A stretch of 64,000 nucleotides of DNA. Source: Amycolatopsis alba DSM 44262 (GTDB lineage Bacteria > Actinomycetota > Actinomycetes > Mycobacteriales > Pseudonocardiaceae). The notes beneath the pieces were generated by a model, which was given only the letters and a program-made list of their open reading frames with translations, had not been told where the DNA came from and did not search any database. This document shows positions 16,133 through 54,544 of the stretch, piece by piece. The stretch's first letter is position 1, and each line of letters opens with the position of its first letter. The translations under genes were made by a program, and so were the position numbers. The stretch spans positions 3,179,665-3,243,664 of the forward strand of contig NZ_KB913032.1 in assembly GCF_000384215.1 (NCBI RefSeq), in the 5' to 3' direction.

Positions 16133-18127
<1,995 letters not shown>

Positions 18128-18171: not shown

Positions 18172-18224
18172 GTCGCGAAAGCCACTTTCGAGACGTCTGA
18201 TGTCTCGAAAGTGGCTTTCGCGAC
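18172..18224. repeat. Dispersed 53-bp hairpin element, copy 1
   Basis: 23-bp arms (18172-18194, 18202-18224) are perfectly complementary around a 7-base loop. The core GCGAAAGCCACTTTCG recurs at 36143, 53904 and 54178. It sits between converging acs and an F420-type oxidoreductase gene and may also stop transcription. Confidence 0.85.
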
Positions 18225-18290: not shown

Positions 18291-18731
18291 TTACGCGGCT
18301 TCGATCCTGAAAGCGGTCAGCCGGTCCGCCGCCGCCTCGAACTCCTCCGGTGTCCCGTCGCGCACGACACCGGCTTTGACCACCATCTCGACCCCTTTGG
18401 GCCGCTGGACCGCGAACTCCCGCAGGATCGGCCCGCGCTCGTCCTCGGGCACCTCGATCAGCCGCACCCGCCGGACTCGCTTGCCCTGCCTCAGCGTTCC
18501 CTCACCCGCGGCACGGGCATTACGCACCCAGTCCGCGCCCGGAATCCCGCCGAGCACGTACTGCCTTCCCGCCACCTCGTACGGCGCGACCGGAGTGTTC
18601 CTGGGTTGCCCGCTCTTCCGGCCCCGCACGGTCAGCACGGACACTGGCCCCAAGTCCAGTCCCAGCCGCTGCAATAGCCGCACCATGCGGTTCATGGTCT
18701 TCAGCCCTGGCGGCAACGACACTTCGCTCAT
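18291..18731 (-). CDS. Deazaflavin (F420)-dependent nitroreductase-family protein
   Basis: 146 residues. VLTVRGRKSGQPRNTPVAPY is the phosphate-contact region of the split-barrel F420H2-dependent reductases of actinobacteria, followed by GGIPGADWVRNARAAGEG. Substrate unknown. ATG 18731 overlaps the stop of the PadR gene (ATGA), so the two form an operon and the regulator probably controls it. Confidence 0.82.
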   Translation of the reverse strand: MSEVSLPPGLKTMNRMVRLLQRLGLDLGPVSVLTVRGRKSGQPRNTPVAPYEVAGRQYVLGGIPGADWVRNARAAGEGTLRQGKRVRRVRLIEVPEDERGPILREFAVQRPKGVEMVVKAGVVRDGTPEEFEAAADRLTAFRIEAA

Positions 18732-23590: not shown

Positions 23591-23633
23591 GAAAGGGCCC
23601 TTCACCGCGTCCTACGCGGTGAAGGGCCCTTTC
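23591..23633. terminator. Convergent terminator hairpin
   Basis: 19-bp perfect arms (23591-23609, 23615-23633) with a 5-base loop between two converging genes. The arm core AGGGCCCTTCAC recurs in shorter form at 33131-33145 and 44290-44302. Confidence 0.8.
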
Positions 23634-34855: not shown

Positions 34856-35920
34856 ATGGACCTGACTGCTCCCACCCGCTCCCTCTCGGCCGCCGTTTCC
34901 GCCGCCGCGAGGCTGCTCACGGCCCGTTCCGGCCTGCTCCTGCGAGCCGGGCGCGACGGCCTGACCGTCGGCGGCAACGACAGCGAACGAGCGGTCCGCC
35001 TGACGTGTGACGCCGTCACGCACACCGACGGCGAAGTCCTCGTCCCGGCCGGGCCGCTCGCGGAGACGTTGCGCATGCTCGAAGACGATCTGGTGCGCCT
35101 GGTCGTCGAGGGATCGCGGCTGGCCGTGCGGGTGGAGGGCGGCCGGTTCGCGCTGCCGTTGCTGAGCCGCGAGCTGCGGCTGCAGGAGATGCCACCCAAG
35201 GTGTCCGAAGTGGACGGTCCAGCGCTCGCGACGGCGCTGCGGACGGTCGCGGGCACGGCGGCCAAGGACGACGCGCTGCCGATGTTCACCGGCGTCCGCG
35301 TGCAGAGCTTCAGCCGTGAGCTGCGGCTGACGGCGTCCGACAGGTACCGGATGGCCGTGGCCACCCTCCCGCTGCGCGCCGAAGGCGAGCCGATCGACGC
35401 GCTCGTCCCGGCGGGCCTGCTCGCCGAGACGGCGAAGCAGGCGCGCGGCACCGTCGGCCTGCACGGCGACGGGACCCGGTTCGGGCTGAGCTGGGCGGGC
35501 GTCACCGTCACCACCGCCGTACTCGACGCGGGATTCCTGTCGGAGAAGCTGATCGAGTCGTCCACTGTGGACACTTCGGTCGAGATCGCCGCCGACGCGC
35601 TGGCCGCCGCCGTGCGCCGGGTGGGCGTCTACGCGGACGATCGCCGGGTGCTGACGCTGGAGGTCGGCGACTCTCAGCTACGGCTGGCCAGTTCGAAGCA
35701 GGACACCGGGGAAGCCGAGGAGACCCTGAAGGCCGAGGTGTCCGGCGGCCGGACGTCACCCTCGTTCCAGGCGCGCTACCTGCTGGACGCGTTGCAGGGG
35801 TTCGCCGGGGAACGGGTGCGGCTCGACATCCAGCCAGGGATGCGGGCCTGCGTCATCCGCGCGGTCGAGCCGGGCGACGTGGAACTCACGTACTACGTGA
35901 TGCCGATGCTGCCGCGCTGA
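34856..35920 (+). CDS. DNA polymerase III beta sliding-clamp paralogue
   Basis: 354 residues, a little shorter than DnaN. Three clamp-fold domains can be traced: N-terminal region to about 115, the middle with LPMFTGVRVQSFSRELRLTA and SDRYRMAVATLPL (about 140-185), and the C-terminal third ending VELTYYVMPMLPR, matching the DnaN ending. It lies 9 bases after the MFS gene and far from a dnaA-recF context, so it is a second clamp. It could serve a repair polymerase or be a non-ring DNA-binding derivative. Confidence 0.8.
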   Translation: MDLTAPTRSLSAAVSAAARLLTARSGLLLRAGRDGLTVGGNDSERAVRLTCDAVTHTDGEVLVPAGPLAETLRMLEDDLVRLVVEGSRLAVRVEGGRFALPLLSRELRLQEMPPKVSEVDGPALATALRTVAGTAAKDDALPMFTGVRVQSFSRELRLTASDRYRMAVATLPLRAEGEPIDALVPAGLLAETAKQARGTVGLHGDGTRFGLSWAGVTVTTAVLDAGFLSEKLIESSTVDTSVEIAADALAAAVRRVGVYADDRRVLTLEVGDSQLRLASSKQDTGEAEETLKAEVSGGRTSPSFQARYLLDALQGFAGERVRLDIQPGMRACVIRAVEPGDVELTYYVMPMLPR

Positions 35921-35937
35921 CACCGGTCCCGAGCGGC

Positions 35938-36033
35938 GATCTCGCGTGATCAGAGACGGAACTCGCGTGATCAGGCGGCGTTCACAGTGTTCGCCGTCTG
36001 ATCACGCGAGTTCCGTTCCTGATCACGCGAGTC
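35938..36033. repeat. Large inverted repeat built of four CTCGCGTGATCA units
   Basis: Each arm (35938-35980, 35992-36033) carries two copies of the 12-mer (or complement) with an 11-base centre; arms match apart from a few bases. Related units lie at 41690-41826 and 54102-54137. Confidence 0.8.
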
Positions 36034-36142
36034 ACGCCTTCGCACACCGCGGGCTCAGACCCGGCGCCACCTTCGCCTTGTCCCTCGCGACCCCTTGACC
36101 CTCGCGACCCTTTGGCCCAGCGCGGTCTGGTGGGACGGCGGT

Positions 36143-36195
36143 GTTGCGAAAGCCACTTTCGCAACCTTCAACGTTGCGAAAGTGGCTTTCGCAAC
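36143..36195. repeat. Dispersed 53-bp hairpin element, copy 2
   Basis: 23-bp perfect arms (36143-36165, 36173-36195), 7-base loop, core GCGAAAGCCACTTTCG as in copy 1. The outer pairs are changed on both sides (GTTGCG with CGCAAC instead of GTCGCG with CGCGAC). The rest of 36034-36249 holds no gene. Confidence 0.85.
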
Positions 36196-36249
36196 CTTCG
36201 AAGCCGGCTTACCCCTCGAACAGAACCGTCCGGCCACTCACGGGGAAAG

Positions 36250-36501
36250 TCAGGCGGAAGCGGCCTTCACGGCAGCCTCGATCTCGCCGAACGACGGGTT
36301 CACCATCGCCGTCGAGCCCACGAACACCGTCGGCACGACCTCGTTCCCGTCCGCCACCGAACGCACACGCGCGGCGGCGTCCGGGTCCTCCCAGATGTTG
36401 ACCCGCTTCACCTTGAAGCCGCTCTTCTCCAGCGGCCGCTCCAGCGCGGCGCAGAACCCGCATCCGGGGCGCCAGTAGAACTCGACCTCGACGTCACTCA
36501 T
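36250..36501 (-). CDS. Glutaredoxin-like (mycoredoxin-type) protein
   Basis: 83 residues, a bare thioredoxin fold with active site WRPGCGFCAALERPL near residues 10-24 and cis-Pro in NEVVPTVFVG. Actinobacteria use mycothiol, so it probably reduces mycothiol mixed disulfides. ATG 36501 overlaps the stop of the MBL gene (ATGA), so the nudix, MBL and mycoredoxin genes form one unit. Confidence 0.85.
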   Translation of the reverse strand: MSDVEVEFYWRPGCGFCAALERPLEKSGFKVKRVNIWEDPDAAARVRSVADGNEVVPTVFVGSTAMVNPSFGEIEAAVKAASA

Positions 36502-37268
36502 TCGCCGTCCTCCGACCTCAGGTAGTCCAACTGTGCCCGCACGCTCCACTCGGCGGGCGCCCACAAAGCCTTGTCGACGTCGGCGTAGACGACCTCGACC
36601 ACCTGGCGCGGGGTGGCATCCGCGCCGAGTGTCTCCAATGCCGAACGCACCTGGCCCAGCCGTTCTTCCCGGTGCGCCAGGTACTCGCGCGCGGTCGCGG
36701 CCAGGTCCGGCAGTTCGGGGCCGTGCCCCGGCAGGCCGGTGGTGCCCTCGGGCAGTTCGATGAGCTTGCGCAGCGAGCGCAGGTAATCGCCGAGGTCGTG
36801 CAGCACGGTGGTGCCGCGGCCGAGGATGGTGTCACCGGTCAGGATCTGCCCGTCGGACACCAGGCAGATCGAGTCGCCGGTGTGTCCCGGCGTGTGCAGC
36901 ACCGAGAGCCGCACGCCGCCCGCCTCGATCACGTCACCGTCCACAAGGGACTTCCCGCCGATGCAGAGCGACTCGTCGAAGGCCCGCACCGGGGCGCCGA
37001 CCCGCTCGGCGAACCAGGGCGCGCCCTCGGCGTGGTCCGGATGGTGGTGGGTCAGGACGATCAGCTCGACGGCGCCGGTTTCCGCCAGCAGGGTCAGATG
37101 CTCGACGTCCTCGTGACCGGGGTCGACGACCACGGAACCGGACGCGCCCGGCCCGCGCAGCACCCAGGAATTGGTGCCTTCCAACGTCATCGATGACGGG
37201 TTGTGCTCCAGCAGCACGGAAGCCGTCGGCGTCACCTGGCGCAGTACGCCGTACGCGGGGGCGCTCAT
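36498..37268 (-). CDS. MBL-fold metallo-hydrolase (Rv3677c orthologue)
   Basis: 256 residues. The zinc site LTHHHPDHAEGAPW near residue 75, then HTPGHTGDSIC and GHGPEL, form a complete HxHxDH metallo-beta-lactamase site with a LACTB2-like C-terminal helix-rich region. Substrate unknown; LACTB2 relatives are endoribonucleases or thioesterases. ATGA overlap with the nudix gene upstream. Confidence 0.88.
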   Translation of the reverse strand: MSAPAYGVLRQVTPTASVLLEHNPSSMTLEGTNSWVLRGPGASGSVVVDPGHEDVEHLTLLAETGAVELIVLTHHHPDHAEGAPWFAERVGAPVRAFDESLCIGGKSLVDGDVIEAGGVRLSVLHTPGHTGDSICLVSDGQILTGDTILGRGTTVLHDLGDYLRSLRKLIELPEGTTGLPGHGPELPDLAATAREYLAHREERLGQVRSALETLGADATPRQVVEVVYADVDKALWAPAEWSVRAQLDYLRSEDGE

Positions 37269-38077
37269 GCCGGGTCCATGACGACGCGGACCTTGTCACC
37301 GTCGCGCACCAGCGTCGGCATGATCTTCACGATCTCGCGTTCGACGGCTTGCACCGTGGCCGCCGAGTCGAACTCGCCCAGTTCGGCGAGGGTGATCCAG
37401 GTCGGTGGCATGAGCATGCGGCGCCCTTCCTTGGCGTCGGCGATGGCCTCTTCCGGGCGCTGCCAGCCGGTGCTGACGGCCTCGGAGGTGGCGCTGTCCG
37501 CCTCCTGCCCCTCGGGCAGCACGGCGACGAAGAAGCAGGTGTCGTAGCGGCGCGGTTCCTGGGGCGGCGTGAGCCAGTTCGCCCACGGGCGCAGGAGATC
37601 CGCGCGCAGCGTCAGGCCGTTCGCCTCGAGGAACGCGGCGAGCGAGAGTTCGCGGGAGACCAGCTTTTCGCGGGCGTCCTGGTACGGCGTCGTGTCGGTG
37701 ACGACGGCGTCCCCGATGCTCGCGAGCAGCACGCCCGACTCTTCGAACATCTCCCGCACGGCCGCGCACACCAGCGCGCGGGCGAGCGGTTCCCCGCAGC
37801 CGAAGCGTTCCGCCCACCAGGCGGGCTCCGGGCCCGCCCAGCTCACCGAAGCGTCGACATCGCGGTCATCCACGCCGCCGCCGGGGAAGACGGTCATCCC
37901 GCCCGCGAACGGCATGCCCTTCACCCGATGCTGCAGGAAGACCTCGACGCCTCGCGCGCCGTCACGGAGGAGGATCACGGTCGCCGCGTCCTTGGGCGTC
38001 ACCGGCTCGCCGCCGGCGTTGGCGCGGGTGCCCACCCCGGCCCCCACCGGGATGTCGAATGTCAGTTCTTCAGCCAC
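37265..38077 (-). CDS. NUDIX hydrolase family protein
   Basis: 270 residues. AGGMTVFPGGGVDDRDVD and AAVREMFEESGVLLAS give the Nudix box with an insertion between the glycine and REx2EE parts, as in the NUDT19-like group. Hydrolyses a nucleoside or CoA diphosphate. First gene of the unit with the MBL hydrolase and mycoredoxin. Confidence 0.8.
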   Translation of the reverse strand: MAEELTFDIPVGAGVGTRANAGGEPVTPKDAATVILLRDGARGVEVFLQHRVKGMPFAGGMTVFPGGGVDDRDVDASVSWAGPEPAWWAERFGCGEPLARALVCAAVREMFEESGVLLASIGDAVVTDTTPYQDAREKLVSRELSLAAFLEANGLTLRADLLRPWANWLTPPQEPRRYDTCFFVAVLPEGQEADSATSEAVSTGWQRPEEAIADAKEGRRMLMPPTWITLAELGEFDSAATVQAVEREIVKIMPTLVRDGDKVRVVMDPA

Positions 38078-38094
38078 ACCCGCAACCTAACATC

Positions 38095-38156
38095 GCAATT
38101 CGTCCTCCAGTTGCGATAGTTGCGCGTGCAACCACCGCATCCAGAGGACGAATCGC
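38095..38156. repeat. Hairpin element between two minus-strand genes
   Basis: Arms 38095-38107 and 38144-38156 (12 of 13) enclose a small stem GTTGC-GCGT-GCAAC (38119-38132). The inner sequence resembles the tail of the crp terminator at 32957-32990. Probable terminator of the gene pair upstream. Confidence 0.6.
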
Positions 38157-38166
38157 GTGGGACTTG

Positions 38167-39312
38167 CTAGGACCAGCTGCTCCCGCTGCTGCGCGAAGCG
38201 CCGTTCAGCCTGATCTTCGCCGCTTCGGCGCGCTCCCGTTCGGCGAGCTCGGCGTGCAGCTCGCGCAGGAGCGCGCGGTCGCGCTCGCTCAGGCTGGGAT
38301 CGTCGAGGTCGAGAGCGGGCAGCTCGACGACCTCGTGCATGCTCGGCTTGCCCGAGGCGATCTCGCGACCCTTTTCGGGGTCCTCCTTGAGCGCCTGGCG
38401 CAGCTGCGCCACCTCGGCCGGGGTCAGGTCGGCCGTGCGCTCGGCGCGGGTCTCCGCCCGCGACTTGCGCGGCAGCGCCGGCTCCTGGGACGACAGCGGT
38501 GCGGCGGGCGCGGGCGCCTGCTGCACGATCGGCACCACCGGAGCGATCGGCTCGACCGGTTCGTGGCCACCACTGCCCACCGGCCGCAACCCGTGCCTGC
38601 TCGGCTGCTCCTTGGCAGGCTCGGGAGCCGGGGCGGGCGCGGCAGGCGGAGTCACCGGCTCGGACCGAAAGTCACTGGAGTGGGTACTCCCGGTGACCCA
38701 GACAGGACTCGCGGCCGACGAAGCGGCCTGGTGATAGGCGGACCGGGCGACGCCGGGTCCCGCGACCTCGACGACCGAGCGGATGCCCGCGCGGCGAAGC
38801 GCGGTGTCCACGCGGAACGCGACCGCGGGCGGGTTGCCCTCCGGGCCGATCTCGACCAGGACGACCCGCTGCGGCAACGCGCCGGGCACGCTGCCCGCGG
38901 GTGTGTTCCGCCACACCGCGTGCACCGACCGGACGTCCGGCAGCACCTGCAGGGTGCGGTCGAGCGCCTCGGCGAGGCCGAATTCGGGGGTGTTCTCACC
39001 GGTGAACCGGTGGGTGAGCACCGACTCGTCCTCCTCGACGAGCAGGTCGTTCGCCAGGGTGGCGTCGGACCGGCTCATTTCGAGGACGAGCGCGAGTTCA
39101 CGCTGTTCGGACGAGCTCACCGGGATCTTCCCCGCGATCAGGGTGCCGGTGGTGAGCTCCACCGCTTCGTCGATGTGCGCACGCGCGATCAGCTCACGCG
39201 CTTCGGTCAAAGCACTGTCGTCGATTCGACCCGCCAGGGCCAGTAACAGGTTGTGCAGGCGCAGGGGCACCGAGAACCCGTCCATGGGCGGGCCGTCGTG
39301 GACCTCCACCAT
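38167..39312 (-). CDS. Unknown protein with helical N-domain and Pro-rich linker, tandem paralogue A
   Basis: 381 residues, not recognised. Residues 15-75 are helical (LHNLLLALAGRIDDSALTEA); 75-185 look like an alternating alpha/beta domain (SVHAVWRNTP, RVVLVEIGP, RRAGIRSVVEVAG). About 190-300 is a Pro/Ala/Ser-rich linker, and the last 80 are charged helices (AEVAQLRQALKEDPEKG; RDRALLRELHAELAERERA). The N-terminal 180 residues share layout and some sequence with the next gene upstream. ATG 39312 follows GGGAG. Confidence 0.6.
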   Translation of the reverse strand: MVEVHDGPPMDGFSVPLRLHNLLLALAGRIDDSALTEARELIARAHIDEAVELTTGTLIAGKIPVSSSEQRELALVLEMSRSDATLANDLLVEEDESVLTHRFTGENTPEFGLAEALDRTLQVLPDVRSVHAVWRNTPAGSVPGALPQRVVLVEIGPEGNPPAVAFRVDTALRRAGIRSVVEVAGPGVARSAYHQAASSAASPVWVTGSTHSSDFRSEPVTPPAAPAPAPEPAKEQPSRHGLRPVGSGGHEPVEPIAPVVPIVQQAPAPAAPLSSQEPALPRKSRAETRAERTADLTPAEVAQLRQALKEDPEKGREIASGKPSMHEVVELPALDLDDPSLSERDRALLRELHAELAERERAEAAKIRLNGASRSSGSSWS

Positions 39313-39350
39313 TGCTCTGCTCCCTCCCGGCTCGCCTGGTGGTGCGAGCG

Positions 39351-39980
39351 TTAAGCGGCGACCAGCCGACTTCCGGTGTCCACCGCGCCCACGCAGACCA
39401 GTTCGGAGCTGGCGAGCGCGGTGCGGTGATAGCCGGTGAGATCGATGCTCGGCGGGAGAACCTCGACGCCGGGCTCCTCGTCACCGAGCACGCGCAGGAC
39501 GCGCTGCAGTTCGCCCGTCAGCCTCGGCAGACCGTTGAGCGCCGTGACCAGGAGGACTCGTTTCGCCCCACCCTCGCCGACCACACCGAGGTGTCGCCAG
39601 CTTTGCCGCACTTCACCCACGTCCGGCCGCCCCCGCAACGTTGCGTGGATCAATACGGACACAGAGTCGACGGAGTTCACCCATTCGGGCGCACTCTGCG
39701 TGAATGTGTACCTGGTCTCGGTGACGTCGTCTACCCCCAGGGTGGAACTCACCTGATGCCAGTCGGCCCCGTGAGGAATAAGCCCGGCGACTAGCAGGCG
39801 ATACTCGGTTTGGTCCAGATCGATCCTGTGCTTAAGCAAAGACCGGGGAAGGGTCCGCGCGAGCGTGCCCATCGCGCCCTCGCCCAGCCAGTCGCGGAAC
39901 CGCCACAGGAGCTGGTCCGGCAGCCGTCCGGCCAGCCGGAGCAGGAGCTCGTGCGAGGACCTCTCGATGTCCGGGTCCAT
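39351..39980 (-). CDS. Unknown protein, tandem paralogue B
   Basis: 209 residues, not recognised. The helical N-domain (ELLLRLAGRLPDQLLWRFRD) aligns by eye with that of the downstream neighbour, and SVDSVSVLIHATLRGR and KRVLLVTALNGLPRLTG correspond to its beta strands. No signal peptide or membrane helix. Start ATG 39980 overlaps the ridA stop by one base, so it is co-translated with ridA. Confidence 0.6.
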   Translation of the reverse strand: MDPDIERSSHELLLRLAGRLPDQLLWRFRDWLGEGAMGTLARTLPRSLLKHRIDLDQTEYRLLVAGLIPHGADWHQVSSTLGVDDVTETRYTFTQSAPEWVNSVDSVSVLIHATLRGRPDVGEVRQSWRHLGVVGEGGAKRVLLVTALNGLPRLTGELQRVLRVLGDEEPGVEVLPPSIDLTGYHRTALASSELVCVGAVDTGSRLVAA

Positions 39981-40435
39981 CACTTCACCTCCACGATCAG
40001 TTCGATCTCGACCGGCGCCCCGATCGGCAGCTCGGCGACGCCGACGGCCGAACGGGCGTGGATACCCGCCTCACCGAAGATCTCGCCGAGCAGCTCGGAC
40101 GCCCCGTTGATCACCGCGGGCTGGCCGGTGAAGCCCTCCGCGGACGCCACGAACCCGACGACCTTGACCACCCGCGCGATGTTGTCGATCCCGGCGACCG
40201 AGTCGACCGCGGCGAGGGCGTTGAGGATCGACGTCCGCGCGTACTGCTTCGCCTCTTCGGGGCTGACCTCGGCGCCGACCTTGCCGGTCGCTTCGAGCTC
40301 GCCCTTGACGAAGGGCAGCTGCCCGGACGTGTAGACGTACGAACCGGTGCGGACGGCGGGCACGTAGGCCGCCAGCGGCGCGGCGACGCCGGGCAGTTCG
40401 ATACCGAGCTCGGCGAGTCGATCGCTCCAGGTCAT
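39980..40435 (-). CDS. RidA-family protein (Rv3678c orthologue)
   Basis: 151 residues. YVYTSGQLPFVKGELEATG and the C-terminal ARSAVGVAELPIGAPVEIEL are typical of the RidA/YjgF family; the family arginine is in ARSAVGV. RidA deaminates reactive enamine/imine intermediates made by PLP enzymes, but many members have other roles. It heads a unit with two unknown proteins and follows a DUF4177 gene. Confidence 0.88.
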   Translation of the reverse strand: MTWSDRLAELGIELPGVAAPLAAYVPAVRTGSYVYTSGQLPFVKGELEATGKVGAEVSPEEAKQYARTSILNALAAVDSVAGIDNIARVVKVVGFVASAEGFTGQPAVINGASELLGEIFGEAGIHARSAVGVAELPIGAPVEIELIVEVK

Positions 40436-40447
40436 GGCTTCAATCCC

Positions 40448-40609
40448 TCAGTTCTTGGCTCGTTTGAGGTAGGCGACGTGCTGCTCCCCGGTCGGGTTCG
40501 GGAGCACGGTGACGAGCTCCCAGCCGTCCTCGCCCCACTGGTCGAGGATCTGCTTGGTGGCATGGATCAACAGGGGGACGGTCGCGTACTCCCACTTGGC
40601 GTCGCTCAT
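40448..40609 (-). CDS. DUF4177 small protein (Rv3678A-like)
   Basis: 53 residues. KWEYATVPLLIHATKQILDQ and WGEDGWELVTVLPN is the DUF4177 pattern. ATG 40609. Lies 12 bases before ridA and is the first gene of that unit, as the small Rv3678A is next to Rv3678c. Function unknown. Confidence 0.85.
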   Translation of the reverse strand: MSDAKWEYATVPLLIHATKQILDQWGEDGWELVTVLPNPTGEQHVAYLKRAKN

Positions 40610-40738
40610 GTCCGGGAGCGTAGCCAAACCGGCAAGGGCGCCCGACACACATGCGGAAAACCCTCTCGCGACCGGCTCGCCGATTTCCCGTCGATGTGTT
40701 TCACTTCACACTTACTCGGGAGTAGATAGGACGTTGAC

Positions 40739-41683
40739 ATGCGGACGACGAAGTCCCTTGCCGTCGCCTTCCTGGCCGCGGCCCTTGCCCTGATCTGCGC
40801 TTCACCGGCGGGCGCCGACGGGAAACTTCCCGTTCCGTGGACCCTCGCGGCGGCACTGCCCGCGCAGGCGGCGAACCCCGGCGGCCCGCCACCCGGCGCG
40901 AACGACTTCGGCTGCCGTCCCGGCGACGCCCATCCGAACCCGGTCGTGCTCGCCCACGGCCTCGGCGCCAACCAGACGGTGAACTGGCAGACGTTCGGCC
41001 CCCTGCTCAAGAACAACGGGTACTGCGTCTTCTCCCTGACCTACGGGGTCCCCGGCGAGCCGCTGCCGATCTATCAGCCCGGCGGACTCCTTCCGATGGA
41101 ACAGAGCGCGAAGGAGCTCTCGGCGTTCGTCGACAAGGTGCTCGGCGCGACCGGCGCGTCCAAGGTGGACCTCCTCGGACATTCCGAGGGCACGCTGATG
41201 CCTTCCTATTACGTGAAGTTCCTCGGCGGAGCGTCCAAAGTGGACAAGTACGTCAGCCTGACCCCGCTTTGGGACGGCACGACACTGTTCGGCGCGTCGC
41301 AGCTGTACGCGCTCGCCGGCGTGCTGGGGCTGGCGCCAGGGTTCAACGGCATCCTCGACCCGGTCTGCGGATCGTGCCGCCCGTTCCTGCGCGGCTCGGA
41401 ATTCCTCACGAACCTGCGCTCCGGCAACGGGATCTTCCAGCCCGGCGTGACGTACACGAACATCATGACCCGCTACGACGAAGCCGTCGTGCCGTACACG
41501 AGCGGGATGGGCAAGGGCGCCAACGTCAAGAACATCGTCCTCCAGGACAGCTGCCTGCTGGACCTGGCGGAGCACGCCGGGGTCGCCGCCGACCGCAACG
41601 CGGCCGGGCACGTCCTCAACGCGCTCGACCCCACGCACGCGAAGCCCGTGCCGTGCGTGCCCGCGACCCCCATCGGAAGCTGA
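40739..41683 (+). CDS. Secreted class-2 lipase/esterase
   Basis: 314 residues with signal peptide (AVAFLAAALALICASPAGA). VVLAHGLGANQTVNWQTFGP forms the oxyanion strand, the nucleophile is in LLGHSEGTLMPSYYV (about residue 145), and the acid and His lie after VLQDSCLLDLAEHAG. Matches lipase class 2 of actinomycetes, which cleaves triacylglycerols or short esters outside the cell. Two GTCCA-N3-TGGAC palindromes lie inside it (41158, 41233). Confidence 0.82.
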   Translation: MRTTKSLAVAFLAAALALICASPAGADGKLPVPWTLAAALPAQAANPGGPPPGANDFGCRPGDAHPNPVVLAHGLGANQTVNWQTFGPLLKNNGYCVFSLTYGVPGEPLPIYQPGGLLPMEQSAKELSAFVDKVLGATGASKVDLLGHSEGTLMPSYYVKFLGGASKVDKYVSLTPLWDGTTLFGASQLYALAGVLGLAPGFNGILDPVCGSCRPFLRGSEFLTNLRSGNGIFQPGVTYTNIMTRYDEAVVPYTSGMGKGANVKNIVLQDSCLLDLAEHAGVAADRNAAGHVLNALDPTHAKPVPCVPATPIGS

Positions 41684-41689
41684 CCCGCT

Positions 41690-41826
41690 CCCACGTGATC
41701 AGACGCCGATCTCACGTGATTGAAGACGGAACTCGCGTGCTTGAAGGCGGAACTCGCGTGATCCGGCCCCAAGCACGCGAGATCGGTGCTCAAGCACGTG
41801 AGATCGGTGCCCGATCACGCGCATGA
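41690..41826. repeat. Array of diverged CTCGCGTGATC-type units in both orientations
   Basis: Six to seven units such as CTCACGTGATT, CTCGCGTGCTT, CTCGCGTGATC and, inverted, AAGCACGCGAGATC and AAGCACGTGAGATC fill this gap between the lipase and a small membrane gene. Same family as 35938-36033. Confidence 0.75.
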
Positions 41827-41833
41827 CGGGCGC

Positions 41834-41839
41834 TACGGT
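41834..41839 (+). promoter_or_regulatory. -10 element TACGGT for leaderless small membrane gene
   Basis: Lies 6 bases before GTG 41846. Confidence 0.4.
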
Positions 41840-41845
41840 GGGCCT

Positions 41846-42094
41846 GTGGAGACCTGGCGTGTGGTCGCGACCGTCCTGCTCGCCGCGGCCGGGCTGCCGC
41901 TGGTGCTGGTCCTGATGGCCAAGGCACGGGACCGCCGGAACAGCTCGGGAACGGTCGCGATCACCGGCGCGGTGACCCTCGTCGTCCTCCTGCTGCTCGG
42001 TGTGGTGATGCTCACGGTGCTGCCCGGCGTCCTGACCTGGGGCATCGTCGCCGTGGTCACGGCCGCGCTCGGCGTCATGATGCTGGCAAGCTGA
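41846..42094 (+). CDS. Small three-helix membrane protein
   Basis: 82 residues. Three hydrophobic stretches (residues 4-20, 35-55 and 57-80) with one charged loop (KARDRRNSSG). Not recognised. GTG 41846 fits a leaderless start; it lies 22 bases before the first Get3-like ATPase and may be functionally tied to it. Confidence 0.6.
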   Translation: METWRVVATVLLAAAGLPLVLVLMAKARDRRNSSGTVAITGAVTLVVLLLLGVVMLTVLPGVLTWGIVAVVTAALGVMMLAS

Positions 42095-42103
42095 CCACTC
42101 AAT

Positions 42104-42109
42104 TAGGGT
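42104..42109 (+). promoter_or_regulatory. -10 element TAGGGT for leaderless Get3-like operon
   Basis: Lies 7 bases before GTG 42117. Confidence 0.45.
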
Positions 42110-42116
42110 GGGACCG

Positions 42117-43121
42117 GTGAGCACACCCCTTGCCGGCTGGACCGACGAACTCGCGAGAGCCAGGCTGCATTTCGTCACCGGCAAGGGCGGGACGGGCAAG
42201 ACCACGCTCGCCGCCTCGCTGGGCCTCGCGCTCGCCAAGGGCGGGCGCCGGGTCCTGCTGATCGAGGTCGAAGGCCGCCAGGGCATCGCCCAGCTCTTCG
42301 ACACCGAGCCGCTGCCGTACGCCGAGCAGCGCATCGCGGCCGTCCCCGGCGGCGGTGAGCTGCGCGCACTGCACATCGACGTCGAAGCCGCGCTCCTCGA
42401 GTACTTCGAGATGTTCTACAACCTCGGCTTCGCGGGGCGGACGCTGCGGCGGATGGGCGCGATCGAGTTCGCGACCACACTCGCGCCGGGTCTGCGCGAC
42501 GTCCTGCTCACCGGGAAGATCAAGGAATGCGTCGGCCGCACCGAATCGGACGGCCGCCACACCTATGACGCCGTCGTCGTCGACTCGCCGCCCACCGGCC
42601 GGGTCGTGAAGTTCCTCGACGTCACCAAGGCGCTGACCGATCTCGCCAAGACCGGCCCGATCCGCGGCCAGGCCGACGGCGTCGTCCGGCTGCTGCACTC
42701 CGGCGAGACCGCCGTCCACCTGGTGACGCTGCTGGAAGAGATGCCCGTGCGGGAGACCGTCGAAGCGGTCGCCGAACTCGACGGCGCCGATCTGCGTCCC
42801 GGCGCGGTGCTGGTCAACCGGGTCCGCCCGCCGCGGCTGCCCGCCCGTTCGGTGACGGCCGCCGCGGACGGCCGTGTCGACGCCTCACGCGTCCGCGCCG
42901 GGCTCGTGTCGGCCGGGCTGGACCTGCCCGAAAGCACCCTCGACGCGCTGGTCGAAGAGACCGTCGAGCACGCCGTCCGGGTCGCCGCGGAGCAGCGCGC
43001 CCGCGAGCAGCTGTCCGAAGCGGATCTGCCGGGTCTCGAACTGCCGGAGCTGACCGGCGGCGTCGACGTCGCGGCGCTCTACGACCTCGCCGAAGCGCTG
43101 ACCGAGCAGGGAGTGCGCTGA
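42117..43121 (+). CDS. Get3/ArsA-like ATPase, first of pair (Rv3679 orthologue)
   Basis: 334 residues. Deviant Walker [21 protein letters not shown] near residue 20, switch [14 protein letters not shown], and switch [18 protein letters not shown] near residue 155. The family couples ATP hydrolysis to client binding; the bacterial pair forms a complex reported to matter for redox and metabolic stress in mycobacteria. GTG 42117 chosen from the promoter spacing; GTG 42108 is in frame. Overlaps its partner by one base. Confidence 0.9.
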
Positions 43122-44251
43122 TGTCGGACATCCTGGAGATCGACAAGCTGATCGACGATCCCGAAAGCCGGGTCATCGTCTGCTGCGGATCCGGCGGGGT
43201 CGGCAAGACGACCACCGCGGCGGCGCTGGCGTTGCGCGCGGCCGAACGCGGACGGCAGACGGTGGTCCTCACCATCGACCCGGCACGGCGGCTGGCGCAG
43301 GCGCTCGGCCTGCGCGAACTGGGCAATCACCCGAAGCAGGTGCAGGTCGAGGGCTTCGAACCCAAGGGCGAACTCTGGGCGATGATGCTCGACATGCGCC
43401 GCACCTTCGACGACATGGTGCGCGTGCACGCCGGCCCGGAACGCGCCGAGCAGCTGCTGCAGAACCCCTTCTACCAGACCATTTCCACGTCGTTCTCCGG
43501 CACGCAGGAGTACATGGCGATGGAGAAACTCGGTCAGCTCGCGGCGACCGACGAGTGGGATCTGATCATCGTCGACACGCCGCCGAGCCGGTCCGCGCTG
43601 GACTTCCTCGACGCGCCGACGCGGCTTTCCAGCGCGCTCGACGGCCGGATGATCCGGCTGCTCACCGGTCCGGCCAAGGCGGGCGGCTGGGGTCTGCGCA
43701 AGGTCGTCAACGCCGGGTTCTCGATGTTCGCGAAGGCCGTCTCGACGATCATCGGCGGCCAGTTGCTGACCGACGCTTCGGCGTTCATGCAGGCCTTCGA
43801 CAGCATGTTCGGGGGCTTCCGCGAACGCGCGCGCAAGACCTCCGAACTGCTGCGGTCCGGCGGCACTTCTTTCCTCGTGGTGGCCGCGCCGGAGCCCGAC
43901 GCGCTGCGCGAGGCGTCCTACTTCGTGGAGCGGCTTTCGGAAGAGAGCATGCCGCTGGCCGGACTGGTCGCGAACCGGACGCATCCCGTGCTCGCCCCGC
44001 TGTCCAGCGCGGAGGCGGTCGCGGCCGCCGAGCAGCTGGCGAAGGGCGAGACCAGCGCACCGCTGGCCGAAGCCGTCCTCCGCCTGCACGCGGACCGGGT
44101 CGCGCTGGCCGAACGAGAGACGCGGCTGCTCGCCAGGTTCACGCGGGCGCATCCCGAGGTCCCGCTGGTGCGGGTGCCCGCGCTCGCCGGTGACGTGCAC
44201 GATCTCGAAGGCCTGCGCGACATCGGCACCAGGTTCGCCACCCAGTCCTGA
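43121..44251 (+). CDS. Get3/ArsA-like ATPase, second of pair (Rv3680 orthologue)
   Basis: 376 residues. Walker [21 protein letters not shown], switch [14 protein letters not shown], switch [20 protein letters not shown]. Longer than its partner by a helical insert (residues about 85-130, [19 protein letters not shown]) that may form the client site. The TGATG overlap ensures joint translation. No arsenite-pump gene is nearby, so an anion-pump role is unlikely. Confidence 0.9.
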
Positions 44252-44256
44252 TCTTC

Positions 44257-44304
44257 CGCGAAGGGCACCTTCCCTGCCTTGGACTCAGAGAAGGGCCCTT
44301 CACG
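44257..44304. terminator. Convergent hairpin between the ATPase pair and whiB4
   Basis: CGCGAAGGGCACCTTC (44257-44272) pairs with GAAGGGCCCTTCACG (44290-44304) with one unpaired base. Core shared with the hairpin at 23591. Confidence 0.6.
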
Positions 44305-44313
44305 GAATCATGA

Positions 44314-44631
44314 TCACGAGACTCGGACGCGTACGTCTTCCTCTTCGTCAATCCCGGTGAAACTGCGCTTCGCCGCTTCGAGCAGATCCGCCCAGCTGGT
44401 CACATCCGGCCGCCGCCGCAGCAGCGCCCGCCGTTCCCGTTCGGTCATACCTCCCCAGATGCCGAAGTTGATCCGGCCATCGAGCGCTTCGGCGAGGCAT
44501 TCCGTCCTGACCGGGCAACCGAGGCAGACCGCCTTGGCCCGGTTCTGTTCCGCCCCCCGGACGAACAGGCCGTCCGGATCGGTGTCGCGGCACGACGCAT
44601 TGACTCGCCAGCTCGACTGGTTGGTTTCCAT
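44314..44631 (-). CDS. whiB4: WhiB-family iron-sulfur regulator, WhiB4 type
   Basis: 105 residues. Four cluster ligands, Cys14 and the triad in AVCLGCPVRTEC (C-x2-C-x5-C), bind 4Fe-4S; GIWGGMTERERRALLRRRP is the beta-turn and DNA-binding end. WhiB proteins contact the principal sigma factor. Position between the Get3-like pair and ponA2 matches Rv3681c (whiB4), a redox regulator. ATG 44631 after GGAGCTGGGGG. Confidence 0.95.
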   Translation of the reverse strand: METNQSSWRVNASCRDTDPDGLFVRGAEQNRAKAVCLGCPVRTECLAEALDGRINFGIWGGMTERERRALLRRRPDVTSWADLLEAAKRSFTGIDEEEDVRVRVS

Positions 44632-44981
44632 ACCCCCAGCTCCCTACCCTGGTGTTCGACACACCACGGGGGGACGAAAAGCCTGCGCTCCTGCCCCCAT
44701 GAGCGTGTCTCCCTTGTGCTCACGTCGGTTGAGCCGGCACCTCCCCGGTGCCGGGTGCCTCCGTTCGGTCGAATGCGACTGCCGCTCGCACTCACCCGTC
44801 TGTCGGCTTTTTCATACGTGAGACGTTGACGGACTGTAAGGGCCCTCGGTTCCCTCCGCCAAGCCCTAGAATGCCTGCCGTCACCATCCGTCACCTCATG
44901 GGGTCGTTTTCGTGACCGGATCCACACCGACAGCTAGGTGACGTCACGGTGGGCTAACGGGATCCGCGTACCCTGGTCCGC
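44632..44981. promoter_or_regulatory. Divergent control region of whiB4 and ponA2
   Basis: 350 bases without a gene. Contains a perfect palindrome GTGACGTCAC (44938-44947), 35 bases before ponA2, and the ponA2 -10 element TACCCT (44969-44974) 7 bases before its GTG. I see no RNA gene. A CRP-type role for the palindrome was considered; spacing is wrong for a CRP box. Confidence 0.5.
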
Positions 44982-47159
44982 GTGCGCAAAACGGACGGTC
45001 TGCTGAAGCTCATTGGCCTGTGTGTGCTCGCGGGGGTGCTGGTCGCGGGGATGTTGTTCCCGGTGGCGGGCGCCGCCGGGGTGCTTTCCAACCAGGCGAG
45101 CGAGACCGTCGACAAGACATCTTCGGACCTCGCGGACATTCCGCCGCCACTGGTGACGACGATCACCGACAACACCGGCAAGCAGATCGCGACGCTGTAC
45201 AAGCAGTTCCGCATCCCGACCAACGAGACGCAGATCAACGACGCCATGAAGTGGGCGCTGATCTCGGTCGAGGACAAGCGCTTCTACGAGCACAACGGGG
45301 TGGACTGGAAGGGCACGCTGCGCGCGGCGGTCAGCAACACCACCGGCGGGGACACGCAGGGCGCGTCGACGCTGACCCAGCAGTACGTCAAGAACTACCT
45401 GATCAACGTCGTCTACCGGGACGACAAGCCGGGCCAGAAGCGCGCACAGGAGCAGTCGGTCGCCCGGAAGCTGAAGGAAGCCCGGATCGCGATCCAGCTG
45501 GAAACCAAGCTGAACAAGATGCAGATCCTGACCGGCTACCTGAACGTCGTCGAGTTCTCGCGTGAGATCTTCGGCGTCGGCGCGGCCGCGAACGCGTACT
45601 TCAACACGCCCGTCGAGAAGCTCACGGTGCCGCAGGCCGCGTTGCTGGCCGGTCTGGTGAACAACCCGATCGTCAACGACCCGTGGAAGAACCCGGCGAA
45701 GGCGACCGAACGCCGCAATCTGGTGCTGGACCGCATGGTCGACAACCAGAAGCTCGCGAAGGCGGACGCGGAACGGTTCAAGGCCGAGCCGCTCGGCGTC
45801 GTCGAGGGCGGCCCGCAGAAACCCGCGTCGAACTGCACCGGCGCCGGCACGGAAAACGGCTTCTTCTGCCAGTACGTCGAGGACTATCTCCTCAAGAACG
45901 GCATGACGAAGGACGATCTCTACACCGGCGGCTACCAGATCAAGACCACTTTGGACGAACGGGCGAACCACGAAGCCAAGATGTCGGCCGAAGCCCAGGT
46001 CAAGAAGACGCAGGACAACGTCGCGAACACGCTCTCGCTGGTGAAGCCGGGCAAGAACCGGCACGAAGTCGTGGCGCTCGCGGCGAACCGTGACTACGGG
46101 CTGCACGAAGACCAGGGCCAGACGACGTTCGCGTTGCCTTCCGGCGTCTACAACACCGCCGGCGCGGGCTCGGCCTACAAGGTCTTCACCGCCGCCGCGG
46201 CGATGGAGGCGGGCGTGGCCGGGATCAACAGCTCACTCCCGGTGCCCGATCTCTACACCTCCAACGTGTTCGCCGGTGGCCCGAAGAAATGCCCCGTGGC
46301 TCCCCGGCCCCCTGCCGGGCCGGGCGGTAACTGGTACTGCGTCGGCAACGCGGGTGACTACAACCCCGCCGGTGGCGCCATGTCGATGCAGCAGGCGCTG
46401 GCGACCTCGCCGAACACCGCGTTCGTGGCCCTGGAGGACAGGCTCGGGAGCACCGGGCCGGTCGTGGAGATGGCGCGCAAGCTCGGCATGCGCGACACCA
46501 TGGCCAGCAACCGGGGCGGCGGCGCCGTCGACCCGAACTCCAAGGACGACGGCGTCAACGTCAATCAGCTCCAGGCGTACGGCCCGAAGCCGGGCTGGAA
46601 CGGATCCGGTGCGTTCACCCTCGGCGTGAGCCCGCTGTCCGGTCTGGAACTGGCGAACGTCGGTGCCACGATCATGAGCGGCGGCGTCTGGTGCCCGCCG
46701 ACCCCGCTCGCGGGTGTCACCGACCGGGACGGAAAGCCTGTTCCCGTCAAGGAAGCCGCTTGCGAGCAGGTGGTGCCCGAAGGTCTCGCCAACACCCTCG
46801 CGGTCGGGATGAGCAGGGACAGCGCGCCCGGTGGGACGTCGTTCGGCGCCGCGAACGGCGCCAGGTGGACCCGGCCGGTGATCGGCAAGACCGGGACCAC
46901 ACAGAGCAACGGCGCGGGTTCGTACCTCGGGGCCACCCCGCAGCTCGCGGGCGCGGCGATGGTGTTCCGCCCGAAGGGTGGAAGTGGCGGCCTCTGCTAC
47001 CTCGGTCCGGGTAACGTGTCCGCTCGCGGCTGCGAAAACATGTGGGGCGGCAAGACGCCGGCGCAGACCTGGTTCGGGGCGATGTCGAAGATCCTCGAAG
47101 GCCAGGAAGCGTTGCCGTTGCCGCAGCCGGACCCGAAGTACATGGGCGGCGGACGCTGA
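44982..47159 (+). CDS. ponA2: Class A penicillin-binding protein PonA2 without PASTA domain
   Basis: 725 residues. One signal-anchor helix (residues 8-32); glycosyltransferase 51 domain with ISVEDKRFYEHNGVDW, GASTLTQQYVKNYL and ARKLKEARIAIQLE; transpeptidase with S-A-Y-K in GAGSAYKVFTAAAA, S-P-N in ATSPNTAFVALED, and IGKTGTTQSNGAGS. Builds peptidoglycan glycan and cross-links. The protein ends soon after the transpeptidase (LPLPQPDPKYMGGGR), with no C-terminal PASTA repeat as I recall for mycobacterial PonA2. GTG is leaderless by promoter spacing. Confidence 0.95.
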   Translation: MRKTDGLLKLIGLCVLAGVLVAGMLFPVAGAAGVLSNQASETVDKTSSDLADIPPPLVTTITDNTGKQIATLYKQFRIPTNETQINDAMKWALISVEDKRFYEHNGVDWKGTLRAAVSNTTGGDTQGASTLTQQYVKNYLINVVYRDDKPGQKRAQEQSVARKLKEARIAIQLETKLNKMQILTGYLNVVEFSREIFGVGAAANAYFNTPVEKLTVPQAALLAGLVNNPIVNDPWKNPAKATERRNLVLDRMVDNQKLAKADAERFKAEPLGVVEGGPQKPASNCTGAGTENGFFCQYVEDYLLKNGMTKDDLYTGGYQIKTTLDERANHEAKMSAEAQVKKTQDNVANTLSLVKPGKNRHEVVALAANRDYGLHEDQGQTTFALPSGVYNTAGAGSAYKVFTAAAAMEAGVAGINSSLPVPDLYTSNVFAGGPKKCPVAPRPPAGPGGNWYCVGNAGDYNPAGGAMSMQQALATSPNTAFVALEDRLGSTGPVVEMARKLGMRDTMASNRGGGAVDPNSKDDGVNVNQLQAYGPKPGWNGSGAFTLGVSPLSGLELANVGATIMSGGVWCPPTPLAGVTDRDGKPVPVKEAACEQVVPEGLANTLAVGMSRDSAPGGTSFGAANGARWTRPVIGKTGTTQSNGAGSYLGATPQLAGAAMVFRPKGGSGGLCYLGPGNVSARGCENMWGGKTPAQTWFGAMSKILEGQEALPLPQPDPKYMGGGR

Positions 47160-47377
47160 TCGTCCAGGGCCGTATTCACCAGCGCAAATCACGATGAGTC
47201 ACACGAATCTAACTTTGAGTGAGCGCCTGGCGGCCTAACGGGGAACAGTGGTCGACGGGATCATGTCAACTGATCACGACATCCCGAGCCGACCACGGAA
47301 AGTGAAGAAAAGAGGCCATTCCAGCGATTCTGCGGCTTCGCCGAAATGGGGGCGGACGATCACCCTGGATGAGCACG

Positions 47378-47383
47378 TAAACT
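47378..47383 (+). promoter_or_regulatory. -10 element TAAACT for leaderless phosphoesterase gene
   Basis: Lies 7 bases before GTG 47391. The rest of 47160-47377 holds no gene or strong repeat. Confidence 0.45.
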
Positions 47384-47390
47384 GGACATT

Positions 47391-48371
47391 GTGAGCACGC
47401 TCAGTAACAACAGTACTTCGGGGGCGACGGTACGGCGCTTGGCCGTGGGAACCGTCGTCCTGGGAGCCGCGACCCTCGGTTACGCGGTCGGCATCGAAAG
47501 GCGCCGGTGGACGCTACGCACCGCGGAACTCCCTGTCCTCGCCGCAGGGGCGAAACCCTTCACGATCCTCCACATCTCGGATCTGCACATGCTCCCCGGT
47601 CACGTGAGCAAGCAACGCTGGGTAGCCGCGCTCGACGAGCTCGCTCCGGATCTCGTGGTCAACACCGGTGACAACCTGTCACATCAGCAGGCCGTGCCGT
47701 CCGTGCTGCGCGCGCTCGGCCCCCTGCTCGACAGGCCCGGCGTGTTCATCTTCGGCAGCAACGACTACTACGCACCGAAGCCGAAGAACCCCGCGCGCTA
47801 CCTCATGCCGAAGGGCAAGAAGAAGCGGATCCACGGCGAGCACCTGCCCTGGCGCGACCTGCGCGCGGCCTTCGTCGAACACGGCTGGGACGACCTCACT
47901 CACGTCCGGCGCACCATCGAGGTCGCCGACCAGTACGTGTTCACCGCCGGCGTCGACGACGCCCACCTCCGCCGAGACCGCTACGCCGACATCGCCGGCC
48001 CGGCGGACCGGGGCGCCGCCGTCCGCATCGGGGTCACGCACTCCCCGGAGCCCCGCGTCCTCGACGAGTTCGCCGGCGACGGCTACGACCTCGTCCTCGC
48101 GGGTCACACCCACGGCGGACAGCTCCGCGTGCCCGGCTACGGCGCGCTCGTCACCAACTGCGAACTCGACCGGACCCGTGCCCGCGGCGCGTCCCGCTGG
48201 GGCGCCCAGATGTGGCTGCACGTCTCCGCCGGCCTGGGAACCTCGCCGTACGCTCCGGCCCGCTTCGCGTGCCCGCCCGAGGCGAGCCTGCTGACCCTCG
48301 TCCCACGGGGCACGACCAGCGACAATCACCGGAAAGCAGCCCCCCGCAAAGCCCGAAACACCGTCCGCTAA
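47391..48371 (+). CDS. Membrane-associated metallophosphoesterase (Rv3683 orthologue)
   Basis: 326 residues. N-terminal membrane helix (AVGTVVLGAATLGYAVG) then a calcineurin-like core: LHISDLHMLPGH, VNTGDNLSH, FGSNDYYAP (GNHD position), and LAGHTHGGQLRVPG. Related to YkuE/LpxH-like two-metal phosphoesterases. Substrate unknown, perhaps a cell-wall lipid phosphate since ponA2 precedes it. Confidence 0.9.
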   Translation: MSTLSNNSTSGATVRRLAVGTVVLGAATLGYAVGIERRRWTLRTAELPVLAAGAKPFTILHISDLHMLPGHVSKQRWVAALDELAPDLVVNTGDNLSHQQAVPSVLRALGPLLDRPGVFIFGSNDYYAPKPKNPARYLMPKGKKKRIHGEHLPWRDLRAAFVEHGWDDLTHVRRTIEVADQYVFTAGVDDAHLRRDRYADIAGPADRGAAVRIGVTHSPEPRVLDEFAGDGYDLVLAGHTHGGQLRVPGYGALVTNCELDRTRARGASRWGAQMWLHVSAGLGTSPYAPARFACPPEASLLTLVPRGTTSDNHRKAAPRKARNTVR

Positions 48372-48399
48372 ACTTCTCCTCGACCCGCTAAGAAGTATC

Positions 48400-48473: not shown

Positions 48474-48482
48474 CGCTAGATC

Positions 48483-48523
48483 AAGAAGGCCCTTCTCGCA
48501 GAACACGCGAGCAGGGCCTTCTT
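48483..48523 (+). terminator. Terminator of tRNA-Pro
   Basis: Arms 48483-48499 and 48507-48523 pair at 16 of 17 positions, followed by GCTTTGCT. Confidence 0.75.
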
Positions 48524-53814: not shown

Positions 53815-53862
53815 CCTCGTGCGTGGTGAGGACGGTCAGAACCGTCCTCACCACGCACGAGG
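53815..53862. repeat. Hairpin with 22-bp perfect arms, AGGACGG family, copy 1
   Basis: Arms 53815-53836 and 53841-53862 with loop CAGA. The core GGACGGTCAGAACCGTCC recurs at 54504-54521, and its half (GTGAGTGGCAAGGACGG) at 54005 and 54495. Confidence 0.85.
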
Positions 53863-53903: not shown

Positions 53904-53956
53904 GTTGCGAAAGCCACGTTCGCAACGTTGAAAGTTGCGAAAGTGGCTTTCGCAAC
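53904..53956. repeat. Dispersed 53-bp hairpin element, copy 3
   Basis: 23-base arms (53904-53926, 53934-53956) with one mismatch, 7-base loop. Same GTTGCG/CGCAAC ends as copy 2. Confidence 0.85.
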
Positions 53957-54177: not shown

Positions 54178-54230
54178 GTCGCGAAAGCCACTTTCGGGAC
54201 ATCAGACGTCGCGAAAGTGGCTTTCGCGAC
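54178..54230. repeat. Dispersed 53-bp hairpin element, copy 4
   Basis: 23-base arms (54178-54200, 54208-54230) with one mismatch, 7-base loop, GTCGCG/CGCGAC ends as in copy 1. Confidence 0.85.
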
Positions 54231-54454: not shown

Positions 54455-54494
54455 GGGCAGTCACGTGAGACAGCCAGCCTCACATTGGGGTCAT

Positions 54495-54530
54495 GAGTGG
54501 CAAGGACGGCCAGAACCGTCCTTGCCACTC
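54495..54530. terminator. dps 3' hairpin, AGGACGG family, copy 2
   Basis: GAGTGGCAAGGACGG (54495-54509) pairs perfectly with 54516-54530. It ends 14 bases after the dps stop and shares its core with 53815-53862. Confidence 0.8.
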
Positions 54531-54544
54531 ACGAGGAGACAGCG

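What the first reader, a model, noticed from the sequence alone, without database searches (positions are those of the whole stretch)
18172..18224. Dispersed 53-bp hairpin family with fixed geometry and compensatory changes
Four copies (18172-18224, 36143-36195, 53904-53956, 54178-54230) all have 23-base arms and a 7-base loop. The core GCGAAAGCCACTTTCG is constant, while both ends of the arms vary in a paired way: GTCGCG/CGCGAC in copies 1 and 4, GTTGCG/CGCAAC in copies 2 and 3, and the inner ends change together too. Paired change means the fold itself is kept. It is too uniform for ordinary terminators and two copies lie 250 bp apart in a gene-free island. It may be a miniature mobile palindrome (REP-like), a RAYT or recombinase target, or a nucleoid-protein site.
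Basis: seen in the sequence. Interest (0 to 1): 0.75.

Follow-up and report, generated by a model that had tools for sequence, protein, structure and literature searches.

The report
Dispersed nested palindromes at gene ends
A soil actinobacterium (Amycolatopsis) carries well over a hundred copies of a rigid 53-base hairpin, itself built of two smaller hairpins, mostly just past the ends of genes; close relatives often carry a differently worded hairpin in the same places, as if gene-end signals were being copied around the genome by an unknown route.

Summary
The four hairpins are real and belong to a large dispersed family: 147 copies with both arms exact in this 9.8-Mb Amycolatopsis genome, 1 to 226 in 20 of 80 genus genomes, none in 40 genomes of other families. 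Spacing is invariant. Each 23-base arm is itself a 10-3-10 palindrome (axes 30 bp apart); ten sub-families share this plan, and a sister clade keeps the frame with the quarter-sites changed in concert. Copies lie at gene 3' ends: of 77 in 1.19 Mb, 50 are convergent, 24 co-directional, 1 divergent, 2 unplaced. At orthologous sites of relatives a hairpin is usually present but often of another family. There is no Y1 transposase (0 of 21 genomes), no neighbour gene recurring above control, no clean empty site and no U-tract. Best reading: REP/REPIN-like dispersed palindromes serving as bidirectional 3'-end (termination) hairpins and spreading over such sites by an unknown, RAYT-independent route. 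Termination and the copying route are inferred, not shown.

The parts
18172..18224 (.). Copy 1, sub-family A: 23-7-23 hairpin, perfect stem; lies 44 bp after the stop of the + gene 16133-18127 and 66 bp before the stop of the - gene 18291-18731 (convergent; own gene calls)
36143..36195 (.). Copy 2, sub-family B: 23-7-23 hairpin, perfect stem and perfect 10-3-10 palindromes within each arm; convergent region between + gene 34856-35920 and - gene 36250-36501 (own gene calls)
53904..53956 (.). Copy 3, sub-family B, one mismatched pair; in the 746-bp region between - gene 54545-55021 (upstream, its stop at 54545) and - gene 52425-53798 (downstream)
54178..54230 (.). Copy 4, sub-family A, one G.G mismatch near the loop; stem extends 2 bp outward; same 746-bp region as copy 3 (A+B pair)
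35956..36016 (.). Another hairpin (stem 25, 1 mismatch, loop 11) of different sequence in the same convergent region as copy 2
53815..53862 (-). Hairpin of the CTCGTGAGTGGC-type family in the same island as copies 3 and 4; on the - strand it is followed by a short T-rich tail and is the only long-stem hit among the 7 hits of the terminator scan
54491..54534 (.). Second hairpin of the same CTCGTGAGTGGC-type family, just beyond the stop of the - gene 54545-55021
23591..23633 (.). Hairpin of a GAAGGGCCCTTCACC-type family in a convergent region; the orthologous site in G008 carries nearly the same hairpin (identity 0.98), in G020 none at the scan's threshold

Best explanation
The finding is one family (sub-families A and B) of a larger set of dispersed nested palindromes in Amycolatopsis. 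The unit is about 53-57 bp: arm (10-3-10 palindrome), 7-bp spacer, inverted arm. It sits just beyond gene stops, above all between convergent genes, where its transcript from either strand folds into the same 23-bp hairpin; I think it acts as a bidirectional transcription terminator or 3'-end barrier. Families multiply within a genome and over time take over such sites from other hairpin families, so that the presence of a hairpin at a site is mostly kept while its sequence is swapped. SHOWN here: copy number, fixed geometry, nested symmetry, 3'-end placement, family turnover at orthologous sites, 100-fold copy-number differences between close species, absence of Y1 transposase. INFERRED: that it terminates transcription, that copying (ectopic conversion or transposition) rather than independent origin spreads it, and that 3'-end placement reflects use rather than only tolerance.
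For: Counts: 147 copies, the same number with spacing allowed to be 10-22 or fixed at 15. Placement: 50 convergent / 24 co-directional / 1 divergent of 75 placed, against 20/50/30% by length (binomial P 3e-18 and 1e-10, copies treated as independent; median 61 bp from the stop). Two thirds of that sequence was chosen for having copies; in the unchosen 400 kb 13 of 15 placed copies are convergent (rows), and gaps of 50 bp or more hold a hairpin in 28 of 38 convergent, 15 of 110 co-directional, 3 of 70 divergent cases. Site kept, sequence swapped: after the stop left of copy 1, 17 of 18 close relatives have a hairpin by scan and the 18th has one broken by an N, none with the main-family cores; in the region of copy 2, 18 of 18 have hairpins of at least four families, sorted by eye. 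Convergent orthologous regions: where the first genome has a hairpin the second has one in 38 of 51, where it has none in 8 of 29 (three pairs summed). Multi-copy hairpins at orthologous sites: 29 same sequence, 60 different hairpin, 12 none (101 directed, non-independent observations). Copy number: G008 141 and its sister G020 55 with the E family 1 and 93; G019 3 and G014 50.
Against: No U-tract follows the stems and the terminator scan misses copies 2-4. No transcript data were available. 13 of 58 occupied regions hold two copies and 2 hold three, more than termination needs. Of 11 more distant relatives at the copy 1 gene, 10 show no hairpin at the scan's threshold; five of those printed show a shorter hairpin by eye. 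At the copy 2 region the 4 more distant relatives with both anchors show none. 13 of 51 convergent orthologous regions lose the hairpin. No empty site was found for this family, so movement is inferred from copy number and site comparison only. Hairpins of one or two copies also turn over (64 same, 31 different, 19 none). In sub-family A the arm palindrome is often imperfect: its fourth pair is Watson-Crick in 43 (left) and 44 (right) of 77 copies.
Confidence: 0.6

Rival explanations
1. Purely selfish REPIN-like element: the palindrome spreads by an unknown enzyme and remains only where it does no harm, which is beyond gene ends; it has no terminator role.
For: 100-fold copy-number differences between close species, A:B mixtures that differ by species in a capped sample, two to three copies in one region, near absence from genes and divergent promoter regions.
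Against: A hairpin of some family is mostly kept at orthologous sites, which tolerance alone does not predict; no Y1 transposase and no empty site found, no neighbour recurring above control.
Confidence: 0.2
2. 3'-end mRNA stabiliser: transcripts end elsewhere (for example by Rho) and the hairpin blocks 3' exonucleases, as proposed for REPs.
For: Very stable stem, near-stop position, no U-tract.
Against: Does not by itself explain the preference for convergent over co-directional gaps.
Confidence: 0.12
3. Double-stranded DNA site for a nucleoid, supercoiling or structure-binding protein between convergent genes; two 15-bp palindromes 30 bp apart would seat two dimers.
For: Exact 30-bp spacing of the arm axes in the nested families.
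Against: Families of different sequence replace each other at one site, so a sequence-specific protein is unlikely; no protein was tested.
Confidence: 0.06

Closest known systems
REPINs (REP doublets forming hairpins), Bertels and Rainey 2011, PMC3116915 (passages read)
   Same: Two inverted palindromes with a short spacer of kept length, forming one long hairpin with compensatory changes, or an alternative 'clover' fold of small hairpins; high copy, intergenic; lone units also occur.
   Different: No Y1 transposase in any of 21 genomes searched; spacer is 7 bp throughout; several co-existing families share one plan; found here in an actinobacterial genus.
GTAG- and CGTC-tagged REP dimers, PMC3733652 (abstract and passages read)
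   Same: Dimers of short palindromes, located mainly between convergent and unidirectional genes; CGTC repeats are reported to lack a dedicated transposase.
   Different: No unpaired GTAG or CGTC tag shared by the family; the held main text has no occurrence of Actinobacteria, Amycolatopsis, Streptomyces or Mycobacterium.
Stable intergenic stem-loops near stop codons / bidirectional terminators, PMC1590033 (passages read)
   Same: 3'-end placement and preference for convergent gaps, reported there for the genomes analysed.
   Different: No U/A tracts; sequences are multi-copy families with fixed length and nested arms; sites swap families between close species.

Membership tests
REPIN | Two inverted REP palindromes with a short spacer forming a hairpin | tested here: met
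   23-7-23 with 10-3-10 arms in 77 own copies; second axis at 15.0 bp
REPIN | Associated RAYT (Y1 transposase) in the genome | tested here: not met
   PF01797: 0 of 21 genomes at E 0.001; control rings in 5 of 14 named genomes
REPIN | RAYT gene or other enzyme gene flanked by the repeats | tested here: not met
   234 flanking proteins of 77 copies: 10 similar pairs, within the range 3-14 of 20 random controls; proteins were not annotated one by one
GTAG/CGTC-tagged REP | Unpaired GTAG or CGTC at one end | tested here: not met
   Neither tag is shared by sub-families A and B (read from the sequences); GTAG occurs in another family, in a paired position
REP (general) | More than 100 short intergenic palindromes with 3'-end preference | tested here: met
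   147 exact copies; 75 of 77 placed in intergenic space, 74 of them next to at least one gene 3' end
MITE-like mobile element | Empty sites or target-site duplication | tested here: inconclusive
   270 joined-flank queries, 8 with any junction match, the 4 of the main family weak; relatives are only about 93% identical and intergenic DNA aligns poorly; duplications were not searched for separately
Intrinsic terminator | Hairpin shortly after a stop codon | tested here: met
   median 61 bp from the stop, 50 of 74 within 100 bp
Intrinsic terminator | U-tract after the stem | tested here: not met
   scan of window 36000-55000 misses copies 2-4; the 12 columns on either side of 77 copies are not T-rich
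Intrinsic terminator | RNA 3' ends at the site | not testable with these tools
   no transcript data held

The most novel reading that the evidence does not exclude
Transcription-end signals in this genus behave as mobile DNA: an unrecognised, RAYT-independent process copies whole nested palindromes into or over existing 3'-end hairpins, so families sweep through a genome's terminators and replace one another between sister species while each site keeps a hairpin; the four quarter-sites of the unit are kept alike together.
Probability: 0.3. Interest if true: 0.85.

Novelty: new variant of a known kind. Interest (0 to 1): 0.6.

Why it matters
If right, it links two things usually treated apart: REP-type repeats and transcription termination in a high-GC group where the hairpins carry no U-tract. 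It offers a genus with many genomes in which repeat families, copy numbers from 0 to 226 and fixed target sites can be compared, so the question of how REP-like palindromes spread without a RAYT becomes directly testable. It also warns that 3'-end hairpins in this group cannot be found by U-tract rules.

Tried and rejected
RAYT-driven REPIN: rejected on 0 of 21 genomes with a Y1 transposase. A linked gene of another kind: similar proteins beside copies are within the random control (10 pairs; 20 controls 3-14). Known RNA family: only a tRNA in the window at gathering thresholds. Spread on plasmids or phages: no match to the 57-bp query of copy 1 in either collection at E 1e-5. Precise empty sites: 270 joined-flank queries against the sequence then held (the long output was cut; one search filtered it) gave 8 with a junction match; the 4 from the main family are weak. 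Two hairpins of another kind (own 896698 and 2072788) are each absent from two other copies of a larger repeat (in L057 and L062). An apparent one-strand run in the list was a listing limit: counts are 193 and 178, and the unit is palindromic. Nested arms are not universal: of 14 sub-families with 3 or more copies in 1.19 Mb, 10 (A and B among them) score 0.59 or more and 4 score 0.13-0.32 (the cut was drawn after seeing the values); G119 shows no axis at 15 in its 15 strong hairpins, G025 has no strong hairpin in 200 kb, G003 shows 0.57 on 6. Literature: the ten searches listed nothing whose title or abstract start points to such repeats in Amycolatopsis or Pseudonocardiaceae; most subscription papers are not held, so this is no proof of absence.

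Full report
What was checked. Copies 1 and 2 are perfect; copy 3 has one changed base in its core and copy 4 a G.G mismatch near the loop. Chance is excluded: 13 core matches at up to 3 mismatches against 0.73 expected; folding energies -39 to -46 kcal/mol.

Size and reach of the family. The window lies in a 9.81-Mb single-contig genome; the scan of named genomes points to Amycolatopsis. The 16-base core occurs 193 + 178 times, the reversed control 0. Requiring both 15-base arm cores exactly gives 147 copies, the same whether the spacing may be 10-22 or must be 15. Of 100 genomes, 17 have copies (own included), all among the 60 of the genus; 0 of 40 from other families of the order. In the fuller genus set 20 of 80 genomes have copies: 226, 147 (own), 141, 109, 105, 86, 82, 72, 55, 50, 50, 40, 38, 34, 31, 17, 6, 3, 1, 1.

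Architecture. I examined 1.19 Mb of own sequence: 20 adjoining stretches not chosen for copies and 40 chosen because earlier lists showed copies there. It holds 83 candidate pairs at up to 6 mismatches, 80 of them with spacing 15, and 77 family copies by a stricter rule. The conserved part runs about 2 bp beyond each arm, after which the flanks lose consensus; 52 of 77 copies still share some flank similarity with another copy, because intergenic regions here are mosaics of repeats. Each arm is itself a 10-3-10 palindrome. A scan of offsets from 8 to 21.5 bp for a second symmetry axis peaks at 15.0 bp from the hairpin centre: mean pairing 0.93 for this family (66 hairpins) and 0.53 for the other strong non-genic hairpins (77), against 0.07-0.47 and 0.16-0.34 at the other offsets. 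The 52 unclustered hairpins average 0.28. Finer clustering gives 14 sub-families with 3 or more copies, 10 of them, A and B included, with nested arms. So the unit is a palindrome of palindromes, imperfect at the fourth arm pair in many A copies; in several sub-families the spacer consensus has TGA or TCA near its middle.

Compensatory change. Within this family the paired change is mainly one two-state difference, C-G versus T-A at four symmetric positions, which separates A from B. Over 25 column pairs, two of them beyond the arms, 92.3% are Watson-Crick against 87.7% after shuffling (maximum 89.1%), and one inner position is paired in only 46 of 77 copies. Between families the evidence is stronger. 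In the E family (pattern) the listed variants within one genome mostly change on both arms together. In species without the core of this family the frame GTCGCGAA-N7-TTCGNGAC-N7-GTCNCGAA-N7-TTCGCGAC still occurs: 24 of 80 genomes have it, 9 of them with no main-family copy. In nearly all listed copies of seven of these nine the quarter-sites carry a different, mutually matching core; the single copy of G004 differs again, and the copies of G058 were not listed.

Where it sits. By my own gene calls (a simple codon-usage caller, not checked against annotation) 50 copies are between convergent genes, 24 between co-directional genes, 1 between divergent genes and 2 at stretch edges. By length one expects 20, 50 and 30%; binomial P is 3e-18 for the convergent excess and 1e-10 for the divergent deficit, copies taken as independent. 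The median distance to the nearest upstream stop is 61 bp, and 19 of 24 co-directional copies are nearer the upstream stop than the downstream start. In the unchosen 400 kb, 13 of 15 placed copies are convergent (rows). Hairpins of any kind (score 14 or more) occupy gaps of 50 bp or more as follows, convergent, co-directional, divergent: own 400 kb 28/38, 15/110, 3/70; G008 30/43, 23/103, 1/72; G020 17/24, 11/48, 1/39; G003 8/15, 6/47, 0/34.

Turnover at fixed sites. After the stop of the gene left of copy 1 (last 150 bp 93-98% identical) 17 of 18 close relatives have a hairpin by scan; the 18th has one interrupted by an N in the held sequence; none has the main-family cores. Of 11 more distant relatives 10 have none at the scan's threshold, though five printed ones show a shorter hairpin by eye. 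In the region of copy 2, 18 of 18 close relatives have hairpins of at least four families, sorted by eye; 4 more distant ones with both anchors have none, and 7 lacked an anchor. In convergent regions shared by G000, G008 and G020 (three pairs summed), the second genome has a hairpin in 38 of 51 cases where the first has one and in 8 of 29 where it has none. Multi-copy hairpins (3 or more in the fetched sequence of their genome) have at the orthologous site the same sequence in 29, a different hairpin in 60 and none in 12 of 101 directed observations; hairpins of one or two copies 64, 31 and 19 of 114. These observations are not independent, and the smaller samples of G008 and G020 under-count copies. 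Copy numbers of three families do not rise and fall together. On a rough tree of 19 species from three gene fragments, G008 (main 141, E 1) and G020 (55, 93) are sisters with support 0.99, G019 (3, 2) and G014 (50, 1) with 0.92; G006 (86, 0) and G015 (6, 6) pair only weakly (0.33) within a supported group. The A:B mixture differs by species in a capped sample (not tested for significance). I read this as amplification and replacement within genomes.

Heterotypic pairs. All 13 intergenic regions with exactly two copies hold one A and one B (permutation P 0.00016, regions taken as independent although some share flanks). I have no tested explanation; instability of two identical nearby palindromes is one.

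Mechanism. Termination is inferred from place, symmetry and stability. Against it stand the missing U-tract and the absence of transcript data. Spreading is inferred from copy number and site comparison. No Y1 transposase (0 of 21), no neighbour recurring above control, no clean empty site and no plasmid or phage match leave the route open; ectopic conversion between hairpins or an unrecognised enzyme are the candidates.

Comparison. It resembles a REPIN in form and a bidirectional terminator in place. It is not filed as a REPIN, because the RAYT and tag tests failed. Passages of PMC3733652 (with its abstract), PMC3116915, PMC6006769 and PMC1590033 were seen; other papers were seen only as listings.

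Noticed in passing
own genome, 13 two-copy intergenic regions including window 53904-54230: Each of the 13 regions with exactly two family copies pairs one sub-family A with one sub-family B, 88-274 bp apart start to start.
   Followed up: partly
window 51374-51417: A convergent-region hairpin (GGTTGTCCACA...TGTGGACAACC) that looks like an inverted pair of DnaA-box-like 9-mers (consensus recalled, not searched); a similar hairpin lies at own 3319842-3319884.
   Followed up: no
window 35921-36060 and 54100-54135: Repeated ATCACGCGAGT-type motifs in direct and inverted order, another intergenic repeat; the first stretch forms its own hairpin.
   Followed up: no
own genome, family GTGAAGGCCTCCTTCCCTAC-N7-inverse (54 exact copies): This nested family carries GTAG, the REP tag, at the inner end of each arm, but in a paired position and without any Y1 transposase.
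   Followed up: partly
own 896574-896752, 2072788, 2113553 and their matches in L057, L062, L053 and L045: A larger composite repeat holding several different non-nested hairpins; the hairpins at 896698 and 2072788 are absent from two other copies of it.
   Followed up: partly
window 48400-48473: A tRNA gene, the only Rfam match in the window at gathering thresholds.
   Followed up: no
L210, L213, L216, L208, L218, within about 120 bases after the orthologue of the gene ending at window 18127: A TCGAAC-N4-GTTCTA motif resembling an SOS/LexA box (recalled) ahead of a co-directional gene in more distant species; L208 has, nearer the stop, a single short palindrome like one arm (by eye).
   Followed up: no
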